NCBI RefSeq assembly: GCF_035917575.1 | Contig: NZ_CP109090.1 | Coordinates: 4,588,001 to 4,652,000, forward strand | Source of the DNA: Streptomyces sp. NBC_01788 | Lineage (GTDB): Bacteria > Actinomycetota > Actinomycetes > Streptomycetales > Streptomycetaceae | Direction of reading: 5' to 3' | DNA length: 64,000 nt | Shown: positions 21,360-42,261 of the stretch, piece after piece | Numbering within the stretch: the first letter of the stretch is position 1 | Layout: each line of letters starts with the position of its first letter | Position numbers and translations under genes: made by a program | The notes under the pieces: model-generated | The model's database searches: none | The model's input: only the letters and a program-made list of their open reading frames with translations | What the model was told of the DNA's origin: nothing

Positions 21360-22467
<1,108 letters not shown>

Positions 22468-22475
<8 letters not shown>

Positions 22476-24396
22476 CGATGGCCTCCTTGAGAGCCGTGGC
22501 GAGCTGTTCCGCCTTGAACGGCATACCGTTGACCTGGTTGTACGAGTGCGCGTCCACCAGGTACTTCGCCCGGACCAGGGTGGCGAGCTGACCGAGGTTC
22601 ATCTCGGGGATCACCACCTTGTCGTAGCCCGTCAGGACCGCGCCGAGGTTCTTCGGGAAGGGGTTGAGATGGCGCAGGTGGGCCTGCGCGATGGACTCCC
22701 CGGCCGCGCGCAGCCGGCGCACCGCCGCCGTGATGGGCCCGTAGGTGGAGCCCCAGCCCAGGACGAGGGTGTGCGCGCCGTCCGGGTCGTCGACCTCGAT
22801 GTCCGGGACCTCGATGCCGTCGATCTTGGCCTGCCGGGTGCGGACCATGAAGTCGTGGTTGGCGGGGTCGTAGGAGATGTTGCCGGTGCCGTCCTGCTTC
22901 TCGATGCCGCCGATGCGGTGCTCCAGGCCCGGCGTGCCCGGGACCGCCCACGGGCGGGCCAGGGTCTTGGGGTCGCGCTTGTAGGGCCAGAACACCTCGG
23001 TGCCGTCGGCCGTGGTGTGGTTGGGGCCCTGCGCGAACTGCACGCGCAGGTCGGGCAGTTCGTCCGGCTCGGGGATGCGCCAGGGTTCGGAGCCGTTGGC
23101 GAGGTAGCCGTCGGAGAGCAGGAAGACCGGGGTGCGGTAGGTCAGCGCGATCCGGGCCGCCTCCAGGGCGGCGTCGAAGCAGTCCGCCGGGGTGCACGGG
23201 GCGACGACCGGGACCGGCGCCTCGCCGTTGCGGCCGTACATCGCCTGCAGCAGGTCCGCCTGCTCGGTCTTGGTGGGCAGGCCGGTGGACGGCCCGCCGC
23301 GCTGGATGTCCACCACCAGCAGCGGCAGCTCCAGCGACACCGCGAGGCCGATCGTCTCGCTCTTGAGCGCCACGCCGGGGCCGGAGGTGGTGGTCACCGC
23401 GAGGGACCCGCCGAAGGCGGCCCCGAGGGCGGCGCCGATGCCCGCGATCTCGTCCTCGGCCTGGAAGGTCCGCACACCGAAGTTCTTGTGCTTGGACAGC
23501 TCGTGCAGGATGTCCGAGGCCGGGGTGATCGGGTAGGAGCCCAGGTACAGCGGCAGGTCCGCCTGGCGGGAGGCCGCCACCAGGCCGTACGCCAGGGCCA
23601 GGTTCCCGGAGATGTTGCGGTACGTGCCGACGGGGAAGGCCTTGGAGGCCGGGGCGACCTCGTAGGAGACCGCGAAGTCCTCCGTCGTCTCACCGAAGTT
23701 CCAGCCCGCGCGGAACGCGGCGATGTTCGCCGCCGCGATGTCCGGCTTCCGGGCGAACTTCGTCCGCAGGAACTTCTCCGTGCCCTCCGTGGGCCGGTGG
23801 TACATCCAGCTCAGCAGGCCCAGCGCGAACATGTTCTTGCTGCGCTCGGCCTCCTTGCGGGACAGGTCGAACTCCTTGAGGGCCTCGACCGTCAGGGTGG
23901 TCAGCGGCACCGGGTGCAGGTGGTAGCCGTCCAGCGAGCCGTCCTCCAGCGGAGAGGCGTCGTAGCCGACCTTCTGCATCGCGCGCTTGGTGAACTCGTC
24001 GGTGTTGACGATGATCTCCGCGCCGCGCGGCAGGTCGCCGACGTTGGCCTTCAGCGCGGCCGGGTTCATCGCGACCAGCACGTTCGGCGCGTCCCCGGGG
24101 GTCAGGATGTCGTGGTCGGCGAAGTGCAGCTGGAAGGAGGACACACCCGGCAGGGTTCCTGCGGGGGCCCGGATCTCGGCCGGGAAGTTCGGCAGCGTCG
24201 ACAGATCGTTCCCGAACGTCGCCGTCTCCGAGGTGAAGCGGTCACCGGTGAGCTGCATACCGTCACCCGAGTCACCGGCGAACCGGATGATCACCCGGTC
24301 CAGGCGGCGGACGTCCTTCGTCCCGGCCGCCCTGCGCTGCTCTCCTACGACGGCACCATCGGCCTGCTCCGCTGGACTGCTGACCTGGCTGGTCAC
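22468..24396 (-). CDS. korA: 2-oxoglutarate:ferredoxin oxidoreductase subunit alpha (gamma-alpha fusion)
   Basis: Large subunit (642 aa) of the KorAB enzyme. The N-terminal third is a gamma domain (VIIRFAGDSGDGMQLTGDRF, FPAEIRAPAGTLPGVSSFQLHF), fused to the alpha/pyrimidine-binding domain (GNLALAYGLVAASRQADLPLYLGSYPITPASDILHELSK, residues about 215-255), then TTSGPGVALKSETIGLAV and the C-terminal transketolase-like VLGWGSTYGPITAAV. This is the actinobacterial oxygen-tolerant arrangement. Together with KorB it supplies a ferredoxin-linked TCA step. It overlaps korB by 8 bases, so translation is coupled. A response regulator is encoded upstream on the same strand. Confidence 0.95.
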
Positions 24397-24553: not shown

Positions 24554-25225
24554 TCACGAGTTCAGATAGGTGAGCACGGCCAGAACACGCCGGTGATCCC
24601 CATCACTTTGGGACAGTCCGAGCTTGAGGAAGATGTTGCTGACGTGCTTCTCGACCGCGCCGTCGCTCACCACGAGCTGCCGGGCGATCGCCGAGTTCGT
24701 CCGCCCCTCGGCCATCAGCCCCAGCACCTCCCGCTCCCGCGGGGTGAGCCCGGCCAGCACGTCCTGCTTGCGGCTGCGGCCGAGCAACTGGGCGACGACC
24801 TCCGGGTCCAGGGCCGTACCGCCCTCGGCCACCCGGACCACCGCGTCCACGAACTCGCGCACCTCGGCCACACGGTCCTTGAGCAGATAGCCGACCCCAC
24901 GGCTGGAGCCTGCCAGCAGCTCGGTGGCGTACCGCTCCTCCACGTACTGCGAGAACACGAGCACGCCCAGCTCGGGGTGCGCCTTGCGCAGCTGCACCGC
25001 GGCCCTGACCCCCTCGTCGGTGTGCGTCGGCGGCATGCGCACGTCCGCCACGACGACATCCGGCAGCGCCTGCTGGTCGTGCAGCTCCGCGATGGTCTTG
25101 ATCAGCGCCTGGGCGTCCCCGACGCCCGCCACGACCTCGTGTCCGCGGTCGGTCAGCAGCCGGGTCAGGCCCTCCCTGAGCAGCACTGAATCCTCGGCGA
25201 TGACCACCCGCACCCTGTCCTCCAT
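24554..25225 (-). CDS. LuxR-family two-component response regulator
   Basis: NarL/LuxR-type response regulator (223 aa). The receiver domain has the acidic pocket VVIAEDSVLLREGL, the phosphoacceptor Asp in VVVADVRMPPTHTDEG (near residue 54), SQYVEERYATELL and the conserved Lys in GYLLKDRVAEV. The C-terminal LuxR HTH is LTPREREVLGLMAEGRTNSAIARQL with VEKHVSNIFLKLGL. The ATG at 25225 follows a G-rich ribosome site; longer starts have none. It sits directly before two sister histidine kinases and after korAB, so it is the likely common output of both kinases. Confidence 0.94.
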   Translation of the reverse strand: MEDRVRVVIAEDSVLLREGLTRLLTDRGHEVVAGVGDAQALIKTIAELHDQQALPDVVVADVRMPPTHTDEGVRAAVQLRKAHPELGVLVFSQYVEERYATELLAGSSRGVGYLLKDRVAEVREFVDAVVRVAEGGTALDPEVVAQLLGRSRKQDVLAGLTPREREVLGLMAEGRTNSAIARQLVVSDGAVEKHVSNIFLKLGLSQSDGDHRRVLAVLTYLNS

Positions 25226-25406
25226 GATCCTCGGCCCCCCAGCCTCGCCCCACGGCCTTCCGTGCGACACGGTCCAGCATTCCAGTATTCGGAACGCGCC
25301 GCGCCCGGGCCAGGGGAAGTGTAGGGAGGCGACCAAATGTTTCGGCCTGCCGCCGCGACCGGAGTGGACGCGACGGCAGGCCGTCATCGGAGGACTTCGT
25401 GGGTGC

Positions 25407-26774
25407 TCAGCGCCGCCAGGGCAGCTCCGCCGTCACCCGGGTGGGGCCCCCGGACGGCGAGTCCACGACGAGGATCCCGTCCACCGCGTCCAGCCGCTCG
25501 GCCAGTCCGGCGAGGCCGGACCCCTTGGACACGTCCGCGTTCCCGACCCCGTCGTCCTCGACCTGGAGCATCAGCCGGTCCTCCGCCCGCCAGACGTCCA
25601 CCGAGGCGGACCGCGCCCCGCTGTGCTTGCTCACGTTCTGGAGCAGCTCGGAGACCGTGAAGTACGCGATGCCCTCGATGGCCGCCGCCGGCCGCTCGTC
25701 CAGATCGACCTCCACCCGCACCGGCACCGTGCAGCGCGAGGCCACCGCCGACAGGGCCGCGTCCAGGCCCCGGTCGGTGAGCACGGCCGGGTGGATGCCC
25801 CGCGCCAGGTCCCGCAGCTCCTGCAACGCGGTCTTCACCTCGCCGTGCGCCTCGTCCACCATCCGCGCCGCCGCCTGCGGATCCTCCGTCAGCTTCTCCT
25901 TGGCCAGCCCCAGGTCCATCGCCAGCGCCACCAGCCGGGCCTGCGCCCCGTCGTGCAGGTCCCGCTCGATGCGCCGCAGGTCCGCGGCGGCCGTGTCCAC
26001 CACGACCCCACGGTCCGACTCCAGCTCGACCACGCGCGCCGACAGCCGCGACGGCCCCAGCAGCCCGTGCACCAGCACCCGGTCCACCATCGTCAGCGCC
26101 CGCACGATCCACGGCGTGGCCAGCGTGAACAGCAGCCCCACCAGCGCGGTCACCGTGATCTCGAACGGGTTGTCCAGATAGATGCCGTGCCGGCCGTCGC
26201 CGTAGAGCTGGAGCCCGCCCTGACCGGCCCACATCGGGAACACCCAGAACCACAGCGGATACGTCAGCAGGCTCCAGCCCAGCGTCCAGAAGACCAGCGA
26301 CACCGTGAAGGAGAACACCGCCCACGGAAAGTGCAGGATCGCGTAGAGCAGGGCCCGCCAGGAGCCGCCGCTCTTCAGCAGGGCTCCCGTCCAGGCCAGG
26401 ACGCCCGGCTTCGCCGCCCGCAGCGGCTGCGGCTCGGCCACCTCCAGGCCGAGCAGCCGGCGCGCCCGCGCCCGCTCCAGCACACCGAACAGGCGGCAGC
26501 CGGCGAGCGTCGCCGCCAGCACCGGGACACCCAGGAACGTCACCAGCAGGCCCGCGCCCAGCGACACCATCGTCACCGCGTAGGTGAACAGCATGATGCC
26601 GATCGGCAGGTTCAGCAGCACGTACCCGAACTCGCGCCAGCTGCGCGCCTCGAACGGCGCCCGCAGCCCGGCCGGCAGCAGGTGCCGTTCCCGGCGGGTG
26701 TCACCGTCGTGGAACCCGCCCGCGCTGTAGGGCCCGTACCCCGGTGCGTGCTGCGATCGGTACTGGGTGGCCAT
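25407..26774 (-). CDS. Sensor histidine kinase 1 (HisKA_3)
   Basis: Membrane histidine kinase of about 455 residues. Four to six hydrophobic segments form an N-terminal sensor (LLNLPIGIMLFTYAVTMVSLGAGLLVTFLG, AVFSFTVSLVFWTLG, TLATPWIVRALTMVD) without a large extracytoplasmic domain. The HisKA_3 phosphoacceptor His is in RIERDLHDGAQARLVALAMDLGLAKEKL, and the HATPase has VSELLQNVSKHSGA (N box), VEDDGVG and GSGLAGLAERLDAV (G box). The second kinase, at 26895-28148, is a close paralogue with blocks of identical DNA. The ATG at 26774 is chosen on the ribosome-binding region GAGGGGACGGGACG. Confidence 0.93.
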   Translation of the reverse strand: MATQYRSQHAPGYGPYSAGGFHDGDTRRERHLLPAGLRAPFEARSWREFGYVLLNLPIGIMLFTYAVTMVSLGAGLLVTFLGVPVLAATLAGCRLFGVLERARARRLLGLEVAEPQPLRAAKPGVLAWTGALLKSGGSWRALLYAILHFPWAVFSFTVSLVFWTLGWSLLTYPLWFWVFPMWAGQGGLQLYGDGRHGIYLDNPFEITVTALVGLLFTLATPWIVRALTMVDRVLVHGLLGPSRLSARVVELESDRGVVVDTAAADLRRIERDLHDGAQARLVALAMDLGLAKEKLTEDPQAAARMVDEAHGEVKTALQELRDLARGIHPAVLTDRGLDAALSAVASRCTVPVRVEVDLDERPAAAIEGIAYFTVSELLQNVSKHSGARSASVDVWRAEDRLMLQVEDDGVGNADVSKGSGLAGLAERLDAVDGILVVDSPSGGPTRVTAELPWRR

Positions 26775-26894
26775 CGGCGTCGTCCCGTCCCCTCGTTCCG
26801 TGTCTCCTGCGGCTGTCCCGCCGTACTCCCAGGGTGCTCGGGCCCGCCCGGCGGGACCATGGAGCACGTCGGCGTCTTGGGCGGGGGGTTTTCC

Positions 26895-28148
26895 CTACCT
26901 CCGGCCGGGGGCGCCCCTGCCGGAGGCGGCCACGCCGGACCCGGCCGGGTCCGCCCCGTCCGTGCGGTCCCGCCACGGCAGCTCCGCCGTGACCGTCGTC
27001 GGACCGCCCGGCGGCGACTCGACGACGAACAGGCCGTCCACCGCGTCCAGCCGCTCGGCCAGACCGCGCATGCCCGTCCCACCGTCCAGCCGGGCGCCGC
27101 CGCGGCCGTCGTCCCCGACCTGGATCAGCAGTCGGTCGTCGGTCCGCCAGACGTCGACGGAGGCGGATCGTGCCCCGCTGTGCTTGCTGACGTTCTGGAG
27201 CAGCTCGGAGACCGTGAAGTAGGCGATCCCCTCGATGGCCGCGGCCGGACGCGCCTCCAGCTCGACCGTCACCTGCACCGGCACCGTGCAGCGCGAGGCC
27301 ACCGCCGACAGGGCCGCGTCCAGGCCCCGGTCGGTGAGCACGGCGGGATGGATGCCCCGGGCCAGGTCGCGCAGCTCCTGGAGCGCGAGCTTCACCTCGC
27401 CGTGCGCCTCCTCGACCATCGCGGCGACATGCTCGTCCGACTGGCCTTCCAGCAGTTTCTCCTTGGCCAGGCCCAGACCCATGGCCAGATTGACCAGCCG
27501 GGCCTGCGCCCCGTCGTGCAGGTCCCGCTCGATGCGCCGCAGGTCCGCGGCGGCCGTGTCCACCACGACACCGCGGTCCGACTCCAGCTCGGCGATCCGC
27601 CGCTCCAGCTCGTCGGACGGCGACAGCAGGCCGCGCACCATCGCCCGGTCCACGTTCGCCAGGCCCCGCGCGAGGAAGGGCAGCACCGGCCAGAGCACGA
27701 AGAGCGAGACCATCGTCACCGCGAAGGTGAGCACCCCCCAGGGCATCCGCATGAAGTGGTAGAGCGACGAACGCCAGCCCACCGGGTCCTTCAGCGCCGT
27801 CCAGATCCGCCCGACCAGTCCCTCCGCGCCGTGCTGCGACAGCGGGCTAGGCTCGTCGATCCGCACCCCGAGCAGCGCACGCGCACGCGCCCGCTCCAGC
27901 CGGCCCAGCAACCGCGAGCCCATCAGCCCGAGCGCCAGCAGCGGGAAACCGATCACGGTGAGTGTCAGCGCGCTGCCGGTCGACAGCACCGTCACCACAT
28001 AGACGAAGCCGCACAGCGACACTGGCAGATTCACCAGCAGATGCGTGATCTCCTTCCAGGTGGGCAGGTCGTAGGCGAAACGGGCCGGCGGCAGCCGGTC
28101 CTCGGCGCCGTCTGCCGCGGGATCGGCGGCGGGAATGCGAGCGGTCAT
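26895..28148 (-). CDS. Sensor histidine kinase 2 (HisKA_3)
   Basis: Sister of the kinase at 25407 (417 aa) with the same plan: a short cytosolic N-terminus, four membrane helices (LLVNLPVSLCGFVYVVTVLSTGSALTLTVIG, MPWGVLTFAVTMVSLFVLWPVLPFLA), His in RIERDLHDGAQARLVNLAMGLGLAKEKL, N box VSELLQNVSKHSGA, GDDGRGG and TGMRGLAERLDAVDGLFVVESP. It lacks the longer sensor insert of kinase 1. The 120-base gap between the two genes holds no obvious terminator. It is divergent from nuoA2, so its promoter region abuts that of the second nuo operon, with which a regulatory link is possible. Confidence 0.93.
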   Translation of the reverse strand: MTARIPAADPAADGAEDRLPPARFAYDLPTWKEITHLLVNLPVSLCGFVYVVTVLSTGSALTLTVIGFPLLALGLMGSRLLGRLERARARALLGVRIDEPSPLSQHGAEGLVGRIWTALKDPVGWRSSLYHFMRMPWGVLTFAVTMVSLFVLWPVLPFLARGLANVDRAMVRGLLSPSDELERRIAELESDRGVVVDTAAADLRRIERDLHDGAQARLVNLAMGLGLAKEKLLEGQSDEHVAAMVEEAHGEVKLALQELRDLARGIHPAVLTDRGLDAALSAVASRCTVPVQVTVELEARPAAAIEGIAYFTVSELLQNVSKHSGARSASVDVWRTDDRLLIQVGDDGRGGARLDGGTGMRGLAERLDAVDGLFVVESPPGGPTTVTAELPWRDRTDGADPAGSGVAASGRGAPGRR

Positions 28149-28363: not shown

Positions 28364-28771
28364 GTGCGGGAGACGTTGCGGGGGTCGACCGCCGTCGTCG
28401 CGGCGGACTACTTCCAGTCCTACTCGGTCGTCGGACTGCTCGCCCTCGTCGGCGTGCTGTTCGTCGCCGTAGCCTTCGGTGCGGGACGCCTGCTGCGCCC
28501 GGTGGTCCCCACCCCGGAGAAACTGCTGACGTACGAGTGCGGCGTCGACCCCGTCGGCGAGGGCTGGGCGCACACCCAGGTCCGCTACTACGTCTACGCG
28601 TTCCTGTACGTGATCTTCGCCGTCGACTCGATCTTCCTGTTCCCCTGGGCGACGGTCTTCGCCGCCCCCGGCTACGGTGCGACGACGCTCGTGGAGATGT
28701 TCATCTTCCTCGGCTTCCTGGCCGTGGGCCTGCTGTACGCATACAAGAAGGGCGTCCTGGCATGGACGTGA
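28364..28771 (+). CDS. nuoA: NADH-quinone oxidoreductase subunit A (second cluster)
   Basis: Membrane subunit with three helices (135 aa) that borders the quinone channel. Conserved features are [17 protein letters not shown], the Cys-Gly turn, [24 protein letters not shown] and [24 protein letters not shown]. The start is the GTG at 28364, seven bases after GAGGGA; the earlier in-frame GTG at 28349 has no usable site. It is the first gene of a second nuo cluster, distinct from the main operon that ends at 2881. Its stop overlaps nuoB by 10 bases. Confidence 0.93.
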
Positions 28772-29379
28772 CCCCCCGCACCCCCGAACCGGTGCCGCTG
28801 CCGGAGCCGAAGCGGCTGGGCGCGCTCGCCCGGCTCGCCCCGGAGCCGATGAAGGTCGTCCTGAACTGGGGCCGGCGCTACTCGCTCTGGGTCTTCAACT
28901 TCGGCCTCGCCTGCTGCGCGATCGAGTTCATCGCCGCGTCGATGGCCCGGCACGACTTCATCCGCCTCGGCGTGATCCCGTTCGCGCCCGGGCCGCGCCA
29001 GGCCGACCTGATGGTGGTGTCCGGCACGGTCACGGACAAGATGGCCCCGGCGGTCAAGCGGCTGTACGAGCAGATGCCGGAGCCCAAGTACGTCATCTCC
29101 TTCGGCGCCTGCTCCAACTGCGGCGGCCCCTACTGGGACTCGTACTCCGTCACCAAGGGCGTCGACCAGATCATCCCGGTGGACGTCTACGTCCCCGGCT
29201 GCCCGCCGCGCCCCGAGGCGCTGCTCCAGGGGATCCTGAAACTCCAGGAGAAGATCGCGCGCGAGTCGCTGGGGGAGCGGTACGCGACCGGGGCGGCCCG
29301 CCCTTCGACGGCCGCGCTGCAGAGCGGGCTCGTACGGCCGCCGGCCACCGCGGCCACCGGCGAGGGGGACCCGCGATGA
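28762..29379 (+). CDS. nuoB: NADH-quinone oxidoreductase subunit B (second cluster)
   Basis: Peripheral iron-sulfur subunit (205 aa) that carries the terminal [4Fe-4S] cluster N2 next to the quinone. All four ligand cysteines are present: the CC pair in [13 protein letters not shown], one in [12 protein letters not shown] and one in [34 protein letters not shown] is also family-typical. The C-terminal 35 residues are variable. It overlaps nuoA and, by ATGA, nuoC. Because no nuoD gene follows, the usual NuoB-NuoD quinone pocket would need a NuoD from the main operon. Confidence 0.95.
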
Positions 29380-30578
29380 GTGGGGCCGGCTGGCTGCCCG
29401 CGCCCGTCGAGGAACTCTTCGGGACCGGCGCCACGGCGGAGGAGTCCTACGAGGTTCTGACGGTGGACGTGCCGCCGGACACGTGGATCTCCGCGCTGCT
29501 GACCGCCCGCGACGAGCTGGGCTGCACGTACTTCGACTGGCTGAGCGCCGTCGACGAGCCGGGCACGGGCTTCCGCGTCTCGGCCCACGTCGTCGCCCTC
29601 GCCCCGGTACGGCGCCTGCTGGTGCGTACGACGGTCGCGCACGAGGCGCCCGTCCTGCCCACCGCGGTGGACGTCTACGCGGGCGCGGCCTGGCACGAAC
29701 GGGAGACGCACGAGATGTTCGGCGTCTCCTTCCGGGACCATCCCGGCCTGGACCACCTCCTCCTGCCGGAGACCTTCGAGGGCCACCCGCTCCGCAAGGA
29801 CTTCGTCCTCGCGGCCCGCGTCGCCAAGGCCTGGCCGGGCGCCAAGGAACCCGGGGAGCCTGCGGCGGGTGCCGCCCACGGCGGCCCCAAGCGCCGCCAG
29901 ATGCTGCCGCCGGGCGTGCCCGACCCCAACGAGTGGGGCCCCCAGAAGGGCCAGCTCCCGCCGGCCCCGTCCCGCCCGGCGCGGGGCGCGGCCCGAGCGG
30001 CGGGCGACGGCCCGGTCCGACGCACCCGCACGGCGGCGGAGGGCTCGACCGGCCAGACGGAGACGGCACCACCCGCCACGAGGCCCCGCCGTATGCGCAG
30101 CGCCGGCGAGGGCTCGGCAAGCCAGACGGCTCGCGGCGACGAGACGGTGACGGGACCCACGGCTGCGCCCGGGTCCGCTGCGGCGGCGGAAGCCGGAACG
30201 GCACCCGAGCGCGCCGCGACCCCGCCAGGGGCGACGCCGCCGAAGGCCGAGCCGCCCGCCGAGAACACACGGGAGGACGGCGACCGCCGCCCGGCGGCCG
30301 ACGGGCCGGCGCCTCAGCGGGCCGGGGCCGCGGGGGTTCGGCGGGCGCGGAGTGCGAGCGAGGGCTCGGCGTCCCAGCGCGGGCAGGAGGCGGCTCCCAA
30401 GCCGTCCACGGAACCGCGCGGTTCGGACGCCCCCTGGCACCACGCCCGCCCGGCGTTCGACGAACCCGAACCGAAACCGGGACCGGCCCCCGAGGACGAC
30501 GGCCCCGACGCCACTGAACCCCCCACCACGCCTGAAACCCCCACCACGCCCGACGAACCGGAAGGAGGCCCGCGGTGA
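29376..30578 (+). CDS. nuoC: NADH-quinone oxidoreductase subunit C with long disordered tail (second cluster)
   Basis: 400 residues, of which only the first 190 are the NuoC (30-kDa) fold: [18 protein letters not shown], then the signature [38 protein letters not shown]. After [22 protein letters not shown] comes a Pro/Ala/Glu-rich tail of about 200 residues with three copies of a degenerate 13-residue motif, RRxR(S/T)AxEGS(A/T)xQ, near residues 214, 237 and 320. Ordinary NuoC is about 200-250 aa, so the tail is unusual. It is normally a partner of NuoD, which is absent here. Confidence 0.9.
30017..30380 (+). repeat. Three degenerate repeats in the nuoC tail
   Basis: DNA copies begin near 30017, 30086 and 30337, each about 43 bases, encoding [26 protein letters not shown] and [13 protein letters not shown]. 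The first two are 69 bases apart; the third is 251 bases further on. Confidence 0.75.
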
Positions 30579-31543
30579 ACGACGCCGTCGACGTCGCCCT
30601 GCGACTGGTCATCGTCTTCGCGGTGTTCCTGACCTTCCCCCTGATCGTGGGGCAGACCGAGCACAAGGTGATGGCGCACATGCAGGGCCGCCTCGGCCCC
30701 ATGTACGCCGGCGGCTTCCACGGCTGGGCCCAACTCGTCGCGGACGGCGTGAAGTTCGCACAGAAGGAGGATGTGGTCCCGGCCGACGCCGACCGCCGCG
30801 TCTTCCAGCTCGCCCCCGCCGTGGCCCTGCTGCCCTACCTCCTCGTGCTGCTCGCCATCCCGATCGGCCCCGGCGAGGGCGCCGTCGGCCAGGTCGTCGA
30901 CGCGGGCATCTTCTTCGTGCTCGCGGTCATGGCCGTCGGAGTCCTCGGCTCGCTCATGGCCGGCTGGGCCTCCGCCAACAAGTTCTCCCTCCTCGGCGGC
31001 CTGCGCACCGCCGCCCAGCTCCTCGCCTACGAACTGCCGATGCTGCTCGCCGCCGCCTCCGTGGCGATGGCGGCAGGCACGGTCTCCCTGCCCGGCATCG
31101 TCCACGCCTTCCACTGGTGGTGGCTGCCCTGGCAGATCGTCGGCGCGATCGTCTTCTTCGTCGCGGGCCTCGCCGAACTGCAACGCCCGCCGTTCGACAT
31201 GCCCGTCGCCGACTCGGAGATCATCTTCGGCGCGTACACCGAGTACACCGGTCTGCGCTTCGCCCTGTTCCTGCTCGCCGAGTACGCCGGGATCGTCGTC
31301 CTGTGCGGCCTGACCACCGTCCTCTTCCTGGGCGGCTGGCACGGCCCCTGGGGCGACGCCGGCCTCGGCTGGGTCTGGACCCTGCTGAAGACGGCGGTCC
31401 TCGCCTTCGTGGTCATCTGGCTCCGCGTCACCTATCCGCGGCTGCGCGAGGACCAGCTCCAGAAGTTCTCCTGGACTCTCCTCGTCCCCCTTTCCCTCGC
31501 CCAGATCGCCCTCACCGGCATCGTCAAGGTGGTGATCCAGTAG
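30575..31543 (+). CDS. nuoH: NADH-quinone oxidoreductase subunit H (second cluster)
   Basis: Quinone-channel membrane subunit (322 aa, eight helices), related to the ND1/FpoH group. The family features are [38 protein letters not shown] near the N-terminus, [39 protein letters not shown] and [38 protein letters not shown]. The GTG start overlaps the nuoC stop by 4 bases and follows GAAGGAGG. NuoH normally docks NuoD and NuoB; a missing NuoD is the puzzle of this cluster. Confidence 0.95.
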
Positions 31544-31545
31544 CC

Positions 31546-32097
31546 ATGGCCCCCATCCCCGGCAGCGGCCTGGCCAAGGGCCTGGCCGTCACCCTCCGCA
31601 CGATGACGAAGAAGACCGTCACCGCGCAGTACCCCGACGTCCAGCCCGATCTCCCGCCGCGCACCCGCGGCGTCATCGGCCTGTTCGAGGAGAACTGCAC
31701 CGTCTGCATGCTGTGCGCCCGCGAGTGCCCGGACTGGTGCATCTACATCGACTCCCACAAGGAGACGGTCCCCGCGGCGACCCCCGGCGGCCGCGAACGC
31801 AGCCGCAACGTCCTCGACCGCTTCGCCATCGACTTCTCCCTGTGCATGTACTGCGGTATCTGCATCGAGGTCTGTCCTTTCGACGCCCTGTTCTGGTCCC
31901 CGGAGTTCGAGTACGCCGAGACCGACATCCGCGACCTCACCCACGAGCGCGACAAGCTGCGCGAGTGGATGTGGACCGTGCCCGCGCCACCCGCCCTCGA
32001 CCCCGGCGCCGAGGAGCCCAAGGAGATCGCCGCCGCCCGCAAGACCGCCGAGAAGCTGGCGGCCGCGCAGGCCGAACCGCGGGAGGGGGACGCGTGA
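31546..32097 (+). CDS. nuoI: NADH-quinone oxidoreductase subunit I (second cluster)
   Basis: Peripheral two-cluster ferredoxin-like subunit (183 aa). Two [4Fe-4S] motifs, [15 protein letters not shown] and [12 protein letters not shown], are intact (clusters N6a and N6b), preceded by [23 protein letters not shown]. The acidic and Lys/Ala-rich C-terminal 35 residues are non-conserved. The ATG at 31546 comes only three bases after the nuoH stop. In an enzyme without NuoEFG it could accept electrons from ferredoxin, as in the Fpo/Ndh-1 type complexes (inference). Confidence 0.95.
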
Positions 32098-32714
32098 GCC
32101 TCGCCGCCGCAAGCCACGGCTTCCTCTCGCCGACCGGCGTCGAGATCGCCTTCCTCCTCGTCGGCCTGGTCACCTTCGGCGCCGCCCTCGTCACCGTCAC
32201 CACCCGGCAGCTCGTGCACGCCGCCCTGTGGCTGGTGGTCACCCTCGGCGGCCTCGCCGTGGAGTACCTGCTGCTCACCGCCGAGTTCATCGCCTGGGTG
32301 CAGGTCCTCATCTACGTGGGTTCCGTCGTCGTCCTCCTCCTGTTCGGCCTGATGCTCACCAAGGCGCCCATCGGCCGCTCCCCGGACGCCGACTCCGGCA
32401 ACCGCTGGGCCGCCCTGACCGTGGCCGTCGCCGCCGCGGCCGCCCTGGTCTGGGTGGTCGTCGACGCCTTCCGCGCCACCTGGATCGACCTGGACGGCGC
32501 CGCCGCCGGATCGACGAGGGTCACCGGCGAGAGCCTGTTCCAGAACTGGGTCCTGCCCTTCGAGGCTCTCTCCGTCCTCCTCCTGGCCGCGCTGGTCGGT
32601 GCGATCGTCCTGTCCCGCAAGGCGAAGGCGGCCGATGCCGCCGCCCAAGCCGCTGCCGCCACCCCGGCAGCGGGAGCCGACGGCGACCCGGGCGCGAAGG
32701 AAGGTGTCCGCTGA
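32094..32714 (+). CDS. nuoJ: NADH-quinone oxidoreductase subunit J (second cluster)
   Basis: Membrane subunit (206 aa) with five helices; [47 protein letters not shown] is the diagnostic stretch. The GTG start overlaps the nuoI stop (GTGA). The C-terminus is Ala-rich ([18 protein letters not shown]) and highly charged, like several other tails in this cluster. The stop overlaps the nuoK ATG by one base. Confidence 0.93.
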
Positions 32715-33109
32715 TGCACCTCGCCTATCCCGCCGTGCTCTCCGCCCTCCTGTTCTGCACCGGCCTGTACGGCGTCCTCGCCCGCCGCAACGCGATCCTG
32801 GTCCTGATGTCCGTCGAGCTCATGCTCAACGCCGTCAACCTCAACCTGGTCGCCTTCGACGTCTGGCTCAGCAGGGCCGCGATCGAGACCCTGCACTCCG
32901 GGCAGGCCCTGACCCTGTTCACCATCGCCATCGCCGCCGCCGAGATCGGCATCGGCCTGGCGATCGTCCTCGCCGTCCATCGCAACCGCGGCACCTCGGA
33001 CATCGACCGGCTCCGTGACTCCGCCGAGGGCCCCGACGACTCCGACGACGGCTCCCACGGCGCCGCCGCGACCGCAGAGGCCGTTGAGAAGGCTGAGGCC
33101 ACCGCGTGA
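32714..33109 (+). CDS. nuoK: NADH-quinone oxidoreductase subunit K (second cluster)
   Basis: Three-helix membrane subunit (131 aa) that carries two conserved glutamates: [17 protein letters not shown] and [20 protein letters not shown]. The family core is about 100 residues; the last 35 are an acidic tail ([15 protein letters not shown]). Translation begins one base inside the nuoJ stop codon, and the stop overlaps the GTG of nuoL. Confidence 0.94.
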
Positions 33110-35100
33110 CCACGACCACCCTCGCCGTCCTCGTTCCGCTCCTTCCGTTCCTCGGCGCCGTGGCCGGCCTGCTGCTCGGCCGCACCGCGCCCGGCTTCGT
33201 CCGCCCGCTCGCCGTCCTGCCGGCCCTCGCCTCCCTGGTCCTGGCCGTGCTGGTCGCCGCGGACCAGGGCGGCGGCCGGGCCGTCGACGCAGCCACCGAA
33301 CTCACCCCCACCGGCTCGGTGCCCATCGAACTCGCCCTGCACATCGACGGCTTCGCCGCGCTCGTCGCCGTGCTGGTCACCGTCGTCGCCACCTGCGTGC
33401 AGATCTACTCCACGGGCTACCTGCGCGACGACCCGCGCTACCCCTCGTACGCCGCGCTCGTCTCCCTGTTCACCTCCGCGATGCTGCTCGTCGTCTACTC
33501 CGGCGACCTGATCGTGCTGCTGGTCGGCTGGGAGGTCATGGGCATCTGCTCCTACTTCCTGGTCGGTCACTACTGGGAGACCCCCGAGGCCCGCGCCGCC
33601 TCCATCAAGGCCTTCCTGGTCACCAAGCTCGGCGACGTGCCCTTCCTGATCGGCCTGTTCGCGCTCGGCACCGACGCGGGATCCTTCCGGATCACCAAGG
33701 TCCTCGGCGCCGTCGCGAGCGGCGGACTGCACCACCCGACCCTGATCGCCCTGCTGCTCCTCGCCGGCGTGGCGGGCAAGTCGGCGCAGTTCCCGCTGCA
33801 CACCTGGCTCCCCGATGCCATGGCGGGCCCGACGCCCGTCTCCGCGCTGATCCACGCCGCGACGATGGTCGCCGCTGGTGTCTACTTCGTCGCCCGGCTC
33901 CTTCCCGTCTTCCAGGCCTCCTCGGCCGCGATGGTCGTCCTCGCCGTCATGGCCGCCATGACGATGGCCGGCTCGGCGCTCGCCGCGCTCGCCCAGGACG
34001 ACATCAAACGCGTCCTCGCCTACTCGACGATCGGCCAGCTCGGCTACATGACCGGCGCGCTCGCCGTCGGCGACCGCGGCGCGGCCGTCTTCCACCTCCT
34101 GTCGCACGGCGCCTTCAAGGCGCTGCTGTTCCTCGCGGCCGGCGTGATCATCCACGCGTCCGGCACCAACTCGCTGGCCGTCATGTCCCGCATGAGCAAC
34201 CTGCGCGCCCGCGTCCAGGACGCCTACTGGACGATGACCGTGGCGCTCCTCGCCCTCGCCGCGATCCCTCCCTTCAGCGGCTTCTTCTCCAAGGAGTCCG
34301 TCCTCGGCGCCGCCGAACACGCGGCCACCGGCCACACCGGCCACGCCCCCGCGGCGGCGGGCTGGACCGTCCTCGTGGCCGGTCTCCTCACCGCCCTGCT
34401 CACCGGCGCCTACGCCATGCGCCTGTGGCTGCTGGCCTTCCGCGGCCGGGGCGCCGAGGCCCCCGACCACGGCAAGCAGCCCCTCGCCATGAACGCCGTG
34501 CTCTGGGTGCTCGCCCTCCCGTCCCTCGCCTTCGGCGGCCTCGCCTTCCGGCTCCTGCCCGGATGGTTCGACGGCCGGGACCTGACCCCCACGCTCGTCA
34601 CCTCCGTCCTCGGCACCGGCGTGGCCCTGGTCGGCGGCATCGTCACCTACGGCGCCTGGCAGCACACCACCGCGCTCGCCGCCCGGACCCCCCTCGGTGC
34701 CGTCGCCGCCCACCCCGAGGGCGACGCCGGACTCGTCGAGGCCGAGGCCATCGCCACCCACCGGCCCGCGTACGGGGACATCGCCCACGCGCCCGACCCC
34801 GCCGACCCCGGACGGCTGCTGCTCGGACCGCTGCACCGGCACGCGGCCGCCGGCTTCCACCTCGACGCCGCGTACACGGCCCTCTTCGTCCGCCCGGTGC
34901 TGGCCGGAGCGAACCTCGTCCGGTTCCTCGACCGGGAGGTCGTCGAGACCTATGTACGCGGCGCCGGAGCCGCACCCCGCCTGCTCGGGGCCGCCGTACG
35001 GCGCGCCCAGACCGGCAATGTCCAGACCTATGTGAGCGCGCTGCTCGCCGGCACCGTCGTCCTGGCGGTCGCCGCCGTCCTTCTGGCCACGGGAGCGTGA
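33106..35100 (+). CDS. nuoL: NADH-quinone oxidoreductase subunit L (second cluster)
   Basis: Antiporter-like proton-pumping subunit (664 aa, about 16 helices including the lateral piston helix). Markers are [17 protein letters not shown] (Glu in the channel), [61 protein letters not shown] and [15 protein letters not shown]. It ends with the long C-terminal helix region ([23 protein letters not shown]) that spans other subunits. The GTG start overlaps nuoK by 4 bases. Full length, no sign of decay. Confidence 0.95.
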
Positions 35101-35106
35101 GCAGGC

Positions 35107-36681
35107 GTGATCGATATCAACGAGTCCGTGATGCAGTTCCTTCTGGCATTCCTCGTCGCCGGCCCGCTCCTCGGAGCGCTCGCCGTCCTCCTGCCCGCGC
35201 CGCCCGGACTGAAGGGGAAGTCACCCGAGCAGGCCGTGCTCCGGCACGGCGTGACCGTGACCGGCGCGATCCTCGCCGCCGCGATCGTCCTCGCCGCCGG
35301 CTTCGACCACGCCCACCCGTCGAAGATGCAGGCCACGACCGACATCAGCTGGATCCCCGCGCTCCATGTGCGCATCCACCTCGGCGTCGACGGCATTTCC
35401 CTCCCCCTCGTCGTACTGACCGCGCTGCTGACCTTCCTCTGCGCGCTGTACTCCTACTTCAAGCCGCCCACGGGCCCCACCCCTAAGGCGTTCGTCGCGC
35501 TGCTGCTCCTGCTCGAGTCCGGCACCCTCGCGACCTTCGCCGTCCTCGACCTGCTGCTGTTCTTCCTCGCGTTCGAGATGGTCCTCATCCCGATGTACTT
35601 CCTCATCGCCCGCTGGGGCGGCGAGGGCCGTCAGGCCGCCGCCTGGCGGTTCATCCTCTACACCCTGCTCGGCTCGGTCGTCATGCTGCTCGGCCTGCTC
35701 CTCGTCGGGCTCAAGACCGGCACCTTCGACATGGTGGCACTCGCCACTGACAACGGCCGGTCACTGACCGCGTCTGTGCAGGTCATCGCCGTTCTGGCGA
35801 TCGGTCTCGGACTCGCGGTCAAGACGCCGATGTGGCCGCTGCACAGCTGGCTGCCGGACGCCCACACCGCCGCCCCGACCGTCGGCTCGGTGCTGCTGGC
35901 CGGCGTCCTGCTGAAGATGGGCACGTACGGCTTCGTCCGCATCCTGCTGCCGATCGCGCCCGACGGCTTCCGCACCCTCGCGCCCTACCTCGCCGCCCTC
36001 GCCGTCGTCGGGATCATCTACGGATCCCTGGCCTGCCTCGCCCTCGCCAGGCGGGGCGCGAAGGGCGACCTCAAGCGGCTCATCGCCTACTCCTCCGTCG
36101 GCCACATGGGCTTCGTCCTGCTCGGCATCGCCACGATGACCCCCACCGGCGTGAACGGCGCCCTGTTCGCCAACATCGCCCACGGCCTCATCACCGGCCT
36201 GCTGTTCTTCCTCGTCGGCGCGCTCAAGGACCGCACCGGCACCACCGACCTCGACGCCCTCGCCGACAAGTCGGGCGCCGCGCTGTACGGAAAGGCACCG
36301 CACCTCGGCGCGCTCCTCGCCTTCGGCGCCGTCGCCTCGCTCGGACTGCCGGGCCTCGCCGGGTTCTGGGGCGAGATGCTCGCCCTGTTCGGCTCGTTCC
36401 GGCCCGCCGCCGACCTCAGCCGGCCCGCCTTCCTCACCTTCATGGCGATCGGCGCCTTCGGCACCCTGCTCACCGCCGCGTACATGCTCGTCGTGGTCCG
36501 CCGCGTCTGCATGGGCGACGTACCGCGGCAGGCACCGCAGCTCGCCGACGTACGGGGCTACGAGTTCGCGGCCTGGACCCCGCTCGTCGCCCTCACCGTC
36601 CTCGCCGGACTCTGGCCGAAGGCCCTGCTCGGGCTCACCGACCCGGCCGTGCAGCAGCTCCTCGCAGGAGGCACCCGATGA
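35107..36681 (+). CDS. nuoM: NADH-quinone oxidoreductase subunit M (second cluster)
   Basis: Proton-pumping membrane subunit (524 aa). Conserved blocks are MVLIPMYFLIARWGGEGRQAAAWRFILYTLLGS, AVKTPMWPLHSWLPDAHTAAPTVGSVLLAGVLLKMGTYGF, GDLKRLIAYSSVGHMGFVLLG and NIAHGLITGLLFFLVG. Its sequence clearly differs from nuoM at the start of the window (for example HSWLPDAHTAAPT instead of HTWLPNAMQEST), so the clusters are old paralogues rather than a recent duplication. The GTG at 35107 is 6 bases after the nuoL stop; the stop overlaps nuoN. Confidence 0.95.
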   Translation: MIDINESVMQFLLAFLVAGPLLGALAVLLPAPPGLKGKSPEQAVLRHGVTVTGAILAAAIVLAAGFDHAHPSKMQATTDISWIPALHVRIHLGVDGISLPLVVLTALLTFLCALYSYFKPPTGPTPKAFVALLLLLESGTLATFAVLDLLLFFLAFEMVLIPMYFLIARWGGEGRQAAAWRFILYTLLGSVVMLLGLLLVGLKTGTFDMVALATDNGRSLTASVQVIAVLAIGLGLAVKTPMWPLHSWLPDAHTAAPTVGSVLLAGVLLKMGTYGFVRILLPIAPDGFRTLAPYLAALAVVGIIYGSLACLALARRGAKGDLKRLIAYSSVGHMGFVLLGIATMTPTGVNGALFANIAHGLITGLLFFLVGALKDRTGTTDLDALADKSGAALYGKAPHLGALLAFGAVASLGLPGLAGFWGEMLALFGSFRPAADLSRPAFLTFMAIGAFGTLLTAAYMLVVVRRVCMGDVPRQAPQLADVRGYEFAAWTPLVALTVLAGLWPKALLGLTDPAVQQLLAGGTR

Positions 36682-38201
36682 GCGCCCTGGCCCAGACGGC
36701 GGCCCCGTCGGTGGTCCAGTCCGTCGACTGGCTCGCCGTCGCGCCGCCCACCCTCACCGCGGTGATCGCCCTCGTGGTCCTCGTCGCCGACCTCTTCCTG
36801 CCACAAGCGCGCAAGCCCCTCCTCGGCTGGCTCTCCGTCGCGGGACTCGCCGCCGCCGCGCTGCTGCTCCTGCCGCTCCTCGACGGCGACCGCGCCACGT
36901 TCTGCCAGACCGGCCTGCCCGACGCGTGCAGCTACACCGCCGACCGCTTCACCCTCGTCATCCAGTTCCTCGTGCTCGGCGGGGCCCTCCTGACCGCGCT
37001 GCTGTCGGTCACCGCGCTGAAGGACGCGCGCAGGGCACTGCCCGAAGGGGAGTTCTGGTTCCTGCTGCTGGCCTCCGCCGCCGGTGCCGCGCTCCTGCCT
37101 GCCGCCCGCGACCTGGCGACCCTCGTCGTCGCCCTGGAGGTCGCCTCCCTGCCCGCCTTCGCCCTCGTCGGCCTCCGCAACGGCGACCGCAGGTCCTCCG
37201 ACGCGGCCCTGAAGTTCTTCCTGTCCTCGGTGACCGCGACCGCCGTCACCCTGCTCGGCGTCAGCTTCGTCTACGCCACCACCGGCACCCTCTACCTCAC
37301 CCAAATCGCCGAACGCATCCAGCACGTCGACGGACAGTTCCACACACTCGCCCAGACCGGCGTCGTCCTCACCCTCGTCGGCTTCGCCTTCAAGACCGCC
37401 GCCGTCCCCTTCCACTTCTGGGTGCCCGACACGTACGTGGGAGCCCCCCTGCCGATCGCCGCCTACCTGTCGGTCGTCGGCAAGGCCGTCGGCTTCACCG
37501 GACTGATCCTCGTCACCGTCGTCGCCTTCCCGTCGTACTCCGGCGCCTGGGGTCCCGCGATGGCCGTGCTCGCCGCGCTCACCATGACCGTCGGCAACGT
37601 CGGCGCCCTGCGCCAGCAGGCCACACGCGCGTACAGCGCGGTACGGCTGCTCGCCTGGTCCTCCGTCGGCCAGGCCGGCTACCTCCTGGTGCCGATCGCC
37701 GCCGCCGGCTACTCCGGGGATCCGCAGAAGTCGATCGGCTCCACGGTCGCCTACGCGCTCATGTACGCCGCCGTGAACATCGGCGCCTTCGCCGTGGCCG
37801 CGCTCGTGGGCCGTACGAGGGAACGCAACCGCGTCAGCGACTACCGCGGCCTGTACGCCACCAACCCGCTGACCGCCCTGCTGCTGGCCTTCTTCCTGCT
37901 CTGCCTGGCCGGCCTTCCGCCGGGCGTCATCGGGCTGTTCGCCAAGGTCACCGTGTTCTCCGCGGCCGTCGACGCCGGACTCGGCTGGCTCGCCGTCGTC
38001 ATGGCCGTCAACGTCGTCATCGCGCTGTACTACTACCTCCAGTGGACGGCCCTGCTGTTCCGCGCCCCCGACGGCGAACCCGTCCGGCACCGCGTCCCGG
38101 CCCCTCTCACCGCCGCCCTCGTCTTGACGGGCGTCCTCGGCGTGGCCCTCTCCGGCGCCCCCCAGCTGGTGCTCCGCTTCGCAGGCACCGGCCTGTTCTG
38201 A
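36678..38201 (+). CDS. nuoN: NADH-quinone oxidoreductase subunit N (second cluster)
   Basis: Last gene of the cluster (507 aa, about 14 helices). Recognisable blocks are TLVVALEVASLPAFALVGL, SSDAALKFFLSSVTATAVTLLG, KTAAVPFHFWVPDTYVGAPLPIAAYLSVVGKAVGF and YSAVRLLAWSSVGQAGYLLV. It differs from the nuoN at 1232 in that the mid-sequence lysine-bearing TDIKRLLAYSS block is replaced by RQQATRAYSAVRLLAWSS. The ATG overlaps the nuoM stop. A short repeat array and an 18-bp palindrome follow the stop. Confidence 0.94.
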   Translation: MSALAQTAAPSVVQSVDWLAVAPPTLTAVIALVVLVADLFLPQARKPLLGWLSVAGLAAAALLLLPLLDGDRATFCQTGLPDACSYTADRFTLVIQFLVLGGALLTALLSVTALKDARRALPEGEFWFLLLASAAGAALLPAARDLATLVVALEVASLPAFALVGLRNGDRRSSDAALKFFLSSVTATAVTLLGVSFVYATTGTLYLTQIAERIQHVDGQFHTLAQTGVVLTLVGFAFKTAAVPFHFWVPDTYVGAPLPIAAYLSVVGKAVGFTGLILVTVVAFPSYSGAWGPAMAVLAALTMTVGNVGALRQQATRAYSAVRLLAWSSVGQAGYLLVPIAAAGYSGDPQKSIGSTVAYALMYAAVNIGAFAVAALVGRTRERNRVSDYRGLYATNPLTALLLAFFLLCLAGLPPGVIGLFAKVTVFSAAVDAGLGWLAVVMAVNVVIALYYYLQWTALLFRAPDGEPVRHRVPAPLTAALVLTGVLGVALSGAPQLVLRFAGTGLF

Positions 38202-38305: not shown

Positions 38306-38499
38306 CACGCGCGCGTGCCGCCCGGAGCCCCGCTCACCCGGACGGCCCGCGCGCCGACGCACCCACCAGGGAACCCGTGGCCGCCGCCTGGCGTTGACCA
38401 GTTCGGAAGGGTCCACTGGACGTGACACCACACGGCACCGGTGGAGTCGAAACGCAGCAAGCGAAGGGTTCCCCTGCCGCACCACTTGGAGGGCGTACC

Positions 38500-39366
38500 G
38501 TGCACCGCCGGCACAACGGGCTCAGGACCGCAGTCCTCCTCGGGGGACTGTCCGCACTCATCATCCTCATCGGCAGTTTCTTCGGCCGCACCGGCCTGGT
38601 CGTCGCGGTCCTCATCGCCCTCGGCACCAACGCGTACGCGTACTGGAACAGCGACAAGCTGGCGCTGCGTGCCATGCGGGCCCGCCCGGTGAGCGAGTTC
38701 GAGGCCCCGGCCCTGTACCGGATGGTCCGCGACCTCTCCACCCAGGCCCGCCAGCCCATGCCCCGCCTGTACATCTCCCCGACCGAAGCACCCAACGCCT
38801 TCGCGACCGGACGCAACCCGCGCAACGCCGCCGTGTGCTGCACGGAAGGCATCCTGCGCATCCTGGACGAGCGGGAGCTGCGCGGCGTCATCGGCCACGA
38901 GCTCAGCCACGTCTACAACCGCGACATCCTCATCTCCTCCGTCGCCGGCGCACTGGCCTCCGTGATCATGTTCCTGGTCAACTTCGCCTGGCTGATCCCG
39001 ATCGGGCGCTCCGACGACGACGACGAGGGCCCCGGTCTGATCGGCATGCTCCTGATCATGATCCTGGGCCCGCTCGCCGCGTCCCTCATCCAACTGGCCA
39101 TCAGCCGTTCCAGGGAGTACGAGGCGGACGCGTCCGGCGCCCGGCTCACCGGCGACCCGCTCGCCCTCGCCGGCGCCCTGCGCAAGCTGGAGACGGGCAC
39201 CCAGCAGCTTCCGCTGCCCCCCGAGCCGCGCATCGAGACCGCGAGTCACATGATGATCGCGAACCCGTTCCGCCCCGGTCAGGGACTGTCGAAGATGTTC
39301 TCCACGCACCCGCCGATGGCGGAGCGCATCGCCCGCCTCGAGCAGATGGCCGGCCGCCGGCTCTGA
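38500..39366 (+). CDS. htpX: Membrane zinc metalloprotease HtpX
   Basis: M48B peptidase (288 aa) for quality control of membrane proteins. Two N-terminal helices ([37 protein letters not shown]) are followed by the active site [15 protein letters not shown] (HExxH near residue 143), two more hydrophobic segments, and [19 protein letters not shown] with the third zinc ligand Glu. The GTG at 38500 is six bases after TGGAGGG and yields the typical HtpX start; an upstream ATG at 38422 would add 26 atypical residues without a ribosome site. It stands alone. Confidence 0.95.
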
Positions 39367-41772: not shown

Positions 41773-42261
41773 CTACCGGTAGTTCACGAACTGGAGGGCG
41801 AAGTCGAAGTCCTGGCCCTTCAACAGCGCGATCACGGTCTGGAGGTCGTCGCGGCTCTTGGAGCTGACGCGCAGCTCCTCACCCTGGACCTGGGCCTTCA
41901 CGCCCTTGGGACCCTCGTCACGGATGAGCTTCGCGACCTTCTTCGCGTTGTCCTGGGAGATGCCCTCCTGGATCGACGCGAAGAGCTTGTACTCCTTGCC
42001 GGACAGCTGCGGCTCGCCCGCGTCCAGGGCCTTCAGGGAGATGCCGCGCTTGATCAGCTTGGACTGGAAGACGTCGAGGACTGCCTTCACCCGGTCCTCG
42101 GAGTTGGCCTCCAGAAGGATCTTCTCACCGGACCACGAGATCGAGGCGCCCACGCCCTTGAAGTCGTAGCGCTGGGAGATCTCCTTGGCGGTCTGGTTGA
42201 GGGCGTTGTCGACCTCCTGCCGCTCGACCTTCGAGACGATGTCGAAACTGGAGTCGGCCAT
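41773..42261 (-). CDS. yajQ: YajQ-family nucleotide/c-di-GMP-binding protein
   Basis: DUF520 protein (162 aa) with two ferredoxin-like domains. The starting [36 protein letters not shown] is diagnostic; [13 protein letters not shown] [32 protein letters not shown] and the end [23 protein letters not shown] complete it. Members bind nucleic acids or cyclic di-GMP (shown in Xanthomonas); in Streptomyces the role is open. It is transcribed toward the YeaQ-like gene and away from tRNA-Tyr. Confidence 0.94.

What the first reader, a model, noticed from the sequence alone, without database searches (positions are those of the whole stretch)
28364..38201. Second complex I cluster lacking nuoD, E, F and G, next to korAB and a two-component system
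Ten intact, translationally coupled genes A-B-C-H-I-J-K-L-M-N encode the membrane arm plus NuoB, C and I, but no 49-kDa NuoD and no NADH module. Ferredoxin-using relatives (Fpo, cyanobacterial NDH-1) also lack EFG but keep NuoD. The neighbouring korAB produces reduced ferredoxin, and NuoI has two intact [4Fe-4S] motifs. One hypothesis is a ferredoxin-linked respiratory complex that borrows NuoD from the main operon, whose end is 25 kb away. The missing NuoD could equally mean a different quinone or ion function. All ten genes are intact, so selection has kept them. Gene content is seen; the ferredoxin link is inference. Similar partial clusters may be known in other Streptomyces.
Basis: partly seen in the sequence, partly recalled or inferred. 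Interest (0 to 1): 0.75.

Follow-up and report, generated by a model that had tools for sequence, protein, structure and literature searches.

The report
Actinobacterial complex I with remodelled quinone site
Streptomyces carries a second version of the respiratory proton pump complex I without its NADH part; its seemingly missing subunit sits far away beside a probable methylating enzyme for that subunit, and has a tryptophan where the essential quinone-holding tyrosine is expected.

Summary
The cluster is real: nuoA2-B2-C2-H2-I2-J2-K2-L2-M2-N2, 28364-38201. NuoD is not missing: a lone nuoD2 lies 217 kb upstream. In deep actinobacterial lineages its relatives sit between C2 and H2 of an 11-gene operon (26 of 37 stretches), so this is an 11-subunit complex I with a relocated subunit, not one borrowing NuoD1. 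Lone nuoD2 in Streptomyces was already in print (PMC3765725). Three things appear new. (1) Trp stands at the quinone-ligand Tyr87 position in 87 distinct NuoDs of this clade; the 72 others compared, including 11-subunit ones of Bacillota and Chloroflexi, have Tyr. (2) nuoD2 is linked to a MidA/NDUFAF7-family (PF02636) methyltransferase: of 276 class genomes 95 have D2, 98 PF02636, 86 both; 80 of the 86 pairs share a contig within 12 kb. NuoD2 keeps the Arg that NDUFAF7 dimethylates in human complex I; 31 of 33 Tyr-type actinobacterial NuoDs have Thr. (3) Some relatives lost the membrane arm but keep B2-C2-I2 plus D2, with Trp and Arg. Ferredoxin input is likely; the KOR link is only moderately supported.

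The parts
28364..28771 (+). nuoA2
   Evidence: NCBIfam PRK07756, 1.8e-34, below that model's curated cutoff
28762..29379 (+). nuoB2, four N2-cluster Cys kept
   Evidence: PRK06411 and TIGR01957 over cutoff (scanned from 28840); the four Cys in 55 of 55 relatives
29376..30578 (+). nuoC2 with a long disordered-looking tail; not listed as nuoC2 in the paper passages seen
   Evidence: TIGR01961 NuoC_fam 2.3e-25, below cutoff
30575..31543 (+). nuoH2
   Evidence: NuoH models, best 6.8e-89, just below cutoff; orthologues at 62% or more identity in 69 of 276 class genomes, one of them in pieces
31540..32097 (+). nuoI2, two [4Fe-4S] motifs, N-terminal membrane-docking-type helix
   Evidence: NuoI models, 8e-29, below cutoff; Cys invariant in 54 of 54 relatives; helix compared
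32094..32714 (+). nuoJ2
   Evidence: NuoJ models, 3e-33, below cutoff
32711..33109 (+). nuoK2 (ATG at 32714)
   Evidence: NuoK models, one over cutoff; two conserved Glu
33106..35100 (+). nuoL2
   Evidence: TIGR01974 over cutoff; charged channel residues kept
35107..36681 (+). nuoM2
   Evidence: TIGR01972 over cutoff
36678..38201 (+). nuoN2
   Evidence: TIGR01770, 1.4e-91, slightly below cutoff
22468..24396 (-). korA, 2-oxoacid:acceptor (ferredoxin-type) oxidoreductase alpha
   Evidence: TIGR03710 over cutoff
21360..22475 (-). korB
   Evidence: TIGR02177 PorB_KorB 3.6e-74, slightly below cutoff
24554..28148 (-). response regulator and two histidine kinases (AbrC3/AbrC2/AbrC1 by position)
   Evidence: naming from a PMC9739823 passage
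38422..39366 (+). htpX, neighbour of nuo2 in many relatives
   Evidence: PRK03072 over cutoff

Best explanation
The cluster encodes ten of the eleven subunits of a proton-pumping, N-module-less complex I (Nuo2). The eleventh, NuoD2, is encoded 217 kb away beside midA, a probable arginine methylase. Electrons from a low-potential iron-sulfur donor, most likely ferredoxin reduced by KOR or other oxidoreductases, enter at NuoI2, pass to cluster N2 in NuoB2 and reduce an acceptor at the NuoB2/NuoD2 site, most likely menaquinone, driving the membrane arm. The acceptor site is rebuilt: Trp replaces the ligand Tyr, and a nearby Arg, probably dimethylated by MidA, sits close to N2. Shown here by sequence: composition, NuoD2 type, Trp, Arg, midA linkage, intact cluster ligands and pump residues. 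Inferred: ferredoxin donor, menaquinone acceptor, methylation, direction of flow.
For: nuoD2 and the PF02636 gene beside it; of 37 stretches around D2, 26 have it between C and H genes of an 11-gene operon, 9 alone (own included), 2 in another operon type; midA follows nuoN2 on the same strand in 16 of 52 mostly deep-lineage stretches; D2 and PF02636 both in 86 of 276 class genomes (D2 95, PF02636 98), Fisher p 4e-47, and 10 of the 12 apparent PF02636-only genomes have a more divergent D2 or a D2 piece beside it; Trp 87 vs Tyr 72 with no third residue; Arg in 87 of 87, 39 of 39 and 11 of 11 Trp-type rows; pump residues conserved in 27-29 full-type relatives; a ferredoxin model for the 11-subunit enzyme of Desulfitobacterium (PMC11238625, abstract and introduction).
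Against: No donor or acceptor has been measured. Nuo1 in the same genome has Tyr, so if both use the same quinone Trp is not needed for it. The membrane arm is dispensable in some lineages, which a pure quinone-linked pump would not predict. Two full-type genomes (G516, G399) have no korA at the cutoff. PF02636 was not found in 9 of 95 D2 genomes, and the seven of these D2s that could be read keep the Arg.
Confidence: 0.6

Rival explanations
1. Nuo2 runs in reverse: menaquinol plus proton-motive force drives ferredoxin reduction, for KOR carboxylation or other low-potential needs.
For: Complex I-type enzymes are reversible and aerobic cells have little surplus reduced ferredoxin (both general knowledge); korAB is next door.
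Against: Nothing in the sequence sets direction; lineages that lost the membrane arm could not do this.
Confidence: 0.15
2. The conserved function is that of the B2-C2-D2-I2 module itself: a ferredoxin/KOR-linked electron-transfer complex with a non-quinone or altered acceptor, the pump being an optional attachment.
For: At least two losses of the membrane arm on the tree; 17 of 20 fetched stretches with B2-C2-I2 and no nuo2-type A, H or J-N gene; reduced NuoI2 lacks the N-terminal helix in 14 of 14 readable cases; N2 and N6 Cys, His, Arg and Trp kept; five still more divergent D2s align another residue at His38 yet keep Arg and Trp.
Against: Full-type genomes keep the pump residues; of the 25 H2-less genomes followed, 24 have a nuo1-like NuoM hit and the other (G384) a NuoN1 piece, so docking on the Nuo1 membrane arm is not excluded.
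Confidence: 0.2
3. Hybrid machinery: Nuo2 subunits swap into the canonical complex or borrow NuoD1 (first reader; a hybrid idea is also in PMC9239103).
For: Shared genome and opposite expression changes reported in PMC9239103 (passage).
Against: Dedicated nuoD2; 29-51% identity between paralogues; complete nuo2 in four genomes with no NuoD1-like PF00346 match.
Confidence: 0.05

Closest known systems
[quoted passage not shown] Desulfitobacterium, PMC11238625)
   Same: ABCDHIJKLMN, no EFG, short NuoD, proposed ferredoxin donor
   Different: Tyr in NuoD there: all 39 readable non-Trp named loci have it, some of them E/F/G-bearing; here Trp, remote nuoD2 and a midA partner
Streptomyces nuo2 (nuoA2, B2, D2, H2-N2; SCO4599-4608) as described in PMC3765725 and PMC9239103
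   Same: The same locus by content and neighbours; the separate nuoD2 is already stated in PMC3765725
   Different: The passages seen do not list NuoC2 and mention neither Trp, midA nor reduced relatives; PMC9239103 calls the function unclear
NDUFAF7/MidA methylation of NDUFS2 Arg85 (PMC3829151, PMC3750175)
   Same: A PF02636 enzyme, and the target Arg in the same HRGxEK motif
   Different: Linked to a complex I paralogue; methylation not shown here
Fpo and cyanobacterial NDH-1
   Same: No NuoEFG; FeS-only input
   Different: NuoD2 scores far below the FpoD (312 vs 600 bits) and NdhH (288 vs 583) cutoffs

Membership tests
11-subunit (N-module-less) complex I | All of A,B,C,D,H,I,J,K,L,M,N encoded | tested here: met
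   Cluster plus lone nuoD2
11-subunit (N-module-less) complex I | No dedicated NuoE, F, G | tested here: met
   None in the cluster or beside nuoD2; PF01512 in own genome: NuoF1 and one far ORF. E and G not searched genome-wide
11-subunit (N-module-less) complex I | N2 ligands in NuoB and two [4Fe-4S] motifs in NuoI | tested here: met
11-subunit (N-module-less) complex I | Short NuoD lacking the SMEALIHHF helix region | tested here: met
11-subunit (N-module-less) complex I | Quinone-head Tyr (T. thermophilus Tyr87) in NuoD | tested here: not met
   Trp81 in NuoD2
11-subunit (N-module-less) complex I | Quinone reductase activity | not testable with these tools
   needs an enzyme assay
14-subunit NADH:quinone oxidoreductase | NADH module EFG | tested here: not met
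Fpo (F420H2 dehydrogenase) | FpoD model over cutoff | tested here: not met
   312 vs 600 bits
Membrane-bound [NiFe] hydrogenase | NiFe-binding CxxC motifs in the large subunit | tested here: not met
   NuoD2 sequence has no CxxC (read from the query)
NDUFAF7/MidA methylase acting on NuoD | PF02636 over cutoff | tested here: met
   72.9 vs 23.3 bits
NDUFAF7/MidA methylase acting on NuoD | Target Arg present in NuoD2 | tested here: met
   Arg58
NDUFAF7/MidA methylase acting on NuoD | Dimethyl-Arg in the protein | not testable with these tools
   needs mass spectrometry

The most novel reading that the evidence does not exclude
The B2-C2-D2-I2 module with Trp and (methyl-)Arg beside N2 is an electron-transfer machine in its own right, fed by KOR or ferredoxin, that does not use quinone in the canonical way. 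The proton pump is an attachment that actinobacteria discarded at least twice, leaving what looks like a soluble 'complex I without a membrane arm', matured by a bacterial NDUFAF7 tied to this paralogue.
Probability: 0.3. Interest if true: 0.92.

Novelty: new variant of a known kind. Interest (0 to 1): 0.74.

Why it matters
[quoted passage not shown] passages of both seen). An actinobacterial paralogue found across the phylum with Trp there is a natural experiment on the coupling mechanism. A linked methylase ties a bacterial locus to a human complex I assembly factor. The reduced relatives offer a small complex for asking which donor feeds N-module-less complex I, a question that PMC11238625 (introduction) describes as open.

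Tried and rejected
Borrowed NuoD1: rejected, since a dedicated nuoD2 exists. A lone ion-antiporter role: unlikely, since FeS ligands are invariant and the membrane arm, not the redox module, is what gets lost. korAB adjacency as proof of partnership: downgraded. korA occurs in 88 of 95 D2 genomes against 125 of 181 others (from; Fisher p 4e-6), far weaker than PF02636; kor lies about 11 kb from nuo1 in three D2-less genomes compared; and 7 of the 20 fetched reduced-type stretches show no kor gene (L282, L284-L288, L296, some of them short contigs). Trp as a mark of all 11-subunit enzymes: rejected. Loss of midA going with loss of Arg58: tested, not seen; the seven readable D2s from PF02636-negative class genomes all keep Arg. 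T. thermophilus position 62 (Met vs Leu) first looked diagnostic but varies in reduced types. Structure prediction was not used: no coordinates would have come back. Data on mutants of the equivalent Tyr (Tocilescu 2010, seen only in a reference list) could not be read; nothing is claimed from them.

Limits of the counts. 28 D2 genomes of the class sample have no H2 at the cutoff; I followed 25 of them, plus G307 and G383 (H2 without D2), left out G351, G374 and G431, and fetched 20 B2 regions. Of these 20, 17 show B2-C2-I2 alone, G062 has remnants of A2 and H2, and two are cut by contig ends (L283, L301). G354, among the 25, is full-type by its M2. In one search the NuoI motif was not found in L291, L299 and L300 (3 of 17). 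The midA recheck was made only for the 12 PF02636-only genomes, not for the 169 double negatives, so the corrected table 96-9-2-169 is one-sided. Genomes are mostly unnamed, unevenly complete and related to each other; the Fisher tests ignore that. In the tree (quick method) several reduced rows are long branches, so 'two losses' is a minimum-change count. In one search some L and C genes of relatives scored best against the nuo1 query, and L077 and L094 show no complete L-N end.

Full report
What is there. The window holds a ten-gene cluster encoding NuoA, B, C, H, I, J, K, L, M and N. It is a deep paralogue of the main 14-gene operon, 29-51% identical gene by gene, not a recent copy. The own genome is one 8.27-Mb contig; its NuoD2 is 89-95% identical to that of named Streptomyces records.

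NuoD is not missing. PF00346 finds NuoD1 in the main operon and one other NuoD, at G000:C1:4398059-4399207, 217 kb before the cluster. No other nuo gene lies within about 9 kb of it. A D2 search at 1e-90 rings in 110 of 296 phylum genomes. Of 37 stretches around such hits, 26 show D2 between C and H genes of an A-to-N operon without E, F, G, often right after the 14-gene operon; 9 show D2 alone (own genome, five other class members, three from other lineages); 2 (L087, L088) are another operon type with F and G genes and a Tyr-type NuoD. So the ancestral operon most likely had eleven subunits and nuoD2 moved out. That Streptomyces nuoD2 is apart from the cluster was already printed (PMC3765725, passage); I claim no priority for that. 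NuoC2 is not in that list, and PMC9239103 (passage) says the cluster lacks C, D and L; NuoC2 and NuoL2 are present.

The quinone site. In Thermus thermophilus the quinone head is held by Tyr87 and His38 of the NuoD subunit; Tyr87 is described as conserved and essential (PMC7434922, passages), and the equivalent Tyr as strictly conserved (PMC8119997, passages). NuoD2 has Trp81 there, 49 residues after the His, as in Thermus. Among distinct sequences compared, 87 have Trp and 72 Tyr, none anything else. Of 80 named loci from one scan, 38 have Trp, 39 Tyr, 3 could not be read. The Trp records are titled as Actinobacteria groups except L108, titled Acidobacteria, whose gene order matches the Acidimicrobiia-type loci (possibly a label error). 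Tyr is found in 11-subunit operons of Bacillus, Paenibacillus, SAR202 Chloroflexi, Ignavibacteria and Bacteroidetes, and in a Desulfosporosinus stretch cut after I. So Trp marks this paralogue, not N-module-less enzymes in general. The scan listed only its best 80 of more matches.

The methylase. The ORF overlapping the 3' end of nuoD2 tail to tail (L004:10176-11297, -) is PF02636, Methyltransf_28, the family of MidA/NDUFAF7 (family membership of those two recalled; function from PMC3829151). NDUFAF7 dimethylates Arg85 of human NDUFS2 (PMC3829151, abstract in listing and passages). The bovine peptide is KCDPHIGLLHRGTEK; the Arg lies about 7 A from N2, is modified in Paracoccus, unmodified in E. 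coli and replaced by Thr in Thermus (PMC3750175, passages). NuoD2 has this Arg (GYMHRGAEK): 87 of 87 Trp-type rows, 39 of 39 readable class D2s, 11 of 11 further Trp rows. Tyr-type rows from actinobacterial genomes have Thr in 31 of 33; the 39 Tyr-type rows from the named scan have Arg, so Arg alone does not mark the paralogue. In 276 class genomes, D2 (1e-95) occurs in 95, PF02636 in 98, both in 86; 80 of these 86 pairs share a contig and all 80 lie within 12 kb; the other 6 are on different contigs. Of the 12 PF02636-only genomes, 8 have a more divergent D2 beside the methylase and 2 a D2 piece; G307 and G353 have none. In 16 of 52 mostly deep-lineage stretches the methylase gene follows nuoN2 on the same strand, 48-949 bases after the NuoN match (many of the other stretches end near there). 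A relative of it also lies in the stretch of 13 of 15 lone D2s from outside the class (exceptions L367 and L372). I read this as nuoD2 and midA having left the operon together, perhaps once; that is an inference.

Reduced relatives. In the class sample H2 orthologues (62% or more identity) occur in 69 genomes, one in pieces, and then identity drops to 44%. 28 D2 genomes have no H2 at the cutoff; 25 were followed. Twenty B2 regions were fetched: 17 hold B2-C2-I2 with no nuo2-type A, H, J, K, L, M or N gene, one (G062) has an A2 remnant and a 123-residue NuoH2 remnant, two are cut by contig ends. On a tree of joined B2, C2, D2 and I2, 17 reduced rows form one starred group and G062 lies among full types, so at least two losses. 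Reduced NuoI2 lacks the GLxKGLAVT...QYP helix in the 14 readable cases of 17. N2 Cys: 20 of 20; NuoI2 Cys: 18 of 18. NuoD2 His and Trp: 23 of 23 D2s from genomes without detected H2. By contrast, 30 NuoB2 positions that are at least 95% conserved in full types, many in the stretch after the tandem Cys, fall to 60% or less, while 28 are kept. Five more divergent D2s align Gln or Thr at His38 but keep Arg and Trp (the alignment there is less sure). The natural reading is that the redox module outlives the pump and that Trp and Arg matter for something beyond the membrane quinone tunnel. Of the 25 genomes followed, 24 have a nuo1-like NuoM hit and G384 a NuoN1 piece, so docking on the Nuo1 membrane arm is not excluded.

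Donor. NuoI2 has two [4Fe-4S] motifs, as expected for ferredoxin input. korA/korB lie divergently near nuo2 or the reduced cluster in many class members (in L291 the called korA and nuoB2 starts leave 47 bases between); 13 of 20 fetched reduced-type stretches show a kor gene. But kor also sits near nuo1 in D2-less genomes compared, and 7 of 95 D2 genomes lack korA at 1e-120 (G308, G322, G345, G398, G399, G460, G516; G308 and G345 have a korA piece at a contig end). I put the KOR link at about even odds and the broader ferredoxin link somewhat higher. The divergent two-component genes match the AbrC1-C3 position in S. coelicolor, a system with a positive effect on antibiotic production (PMC9739823, passage); PMC9239103 (passage) instead calls it a suppressor.

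Verdict. The listings of searches (open-access library; most listed papers not opened) showed none of these three, which is weak evidence of novelty.

Noticed in passing
G000:C1:5839909-5841765 (+): A second korA, 88% identical to the one in the window; G539 also lists two.
   Followed up: no
L404 (G000:C1:2773962-2774447): ORF with a NuoF-like domain and a ferredoxin-like C-terminus, downstream of an ORF that looks like a membrane protein; not part of nuo2 (domain reading by eye).
   Followed up: partly
L087, L088: Another actinobacterial Nuo operon type: A-B-C-D-H-I followed by F and G genes, with a Tyr-type NuoD.
   Followed up: no
L302: In G204 the nuo2 cluster is interrupted by unassigned stretches (B2 to C2 about 5 kb, H2 to I2 about 6 kb).
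   Followed up: no
window 38422-39366 and 41773-42261: htpX and a YajQ-like gene (name recalled) stay beside nuo2 or its reduced form in several relatives.
   Followed up: partly
window 29376-30578: NuoC2 has a roughly 240-residue repetitive, probably disordered tail; function unknown.
   Followed up: no
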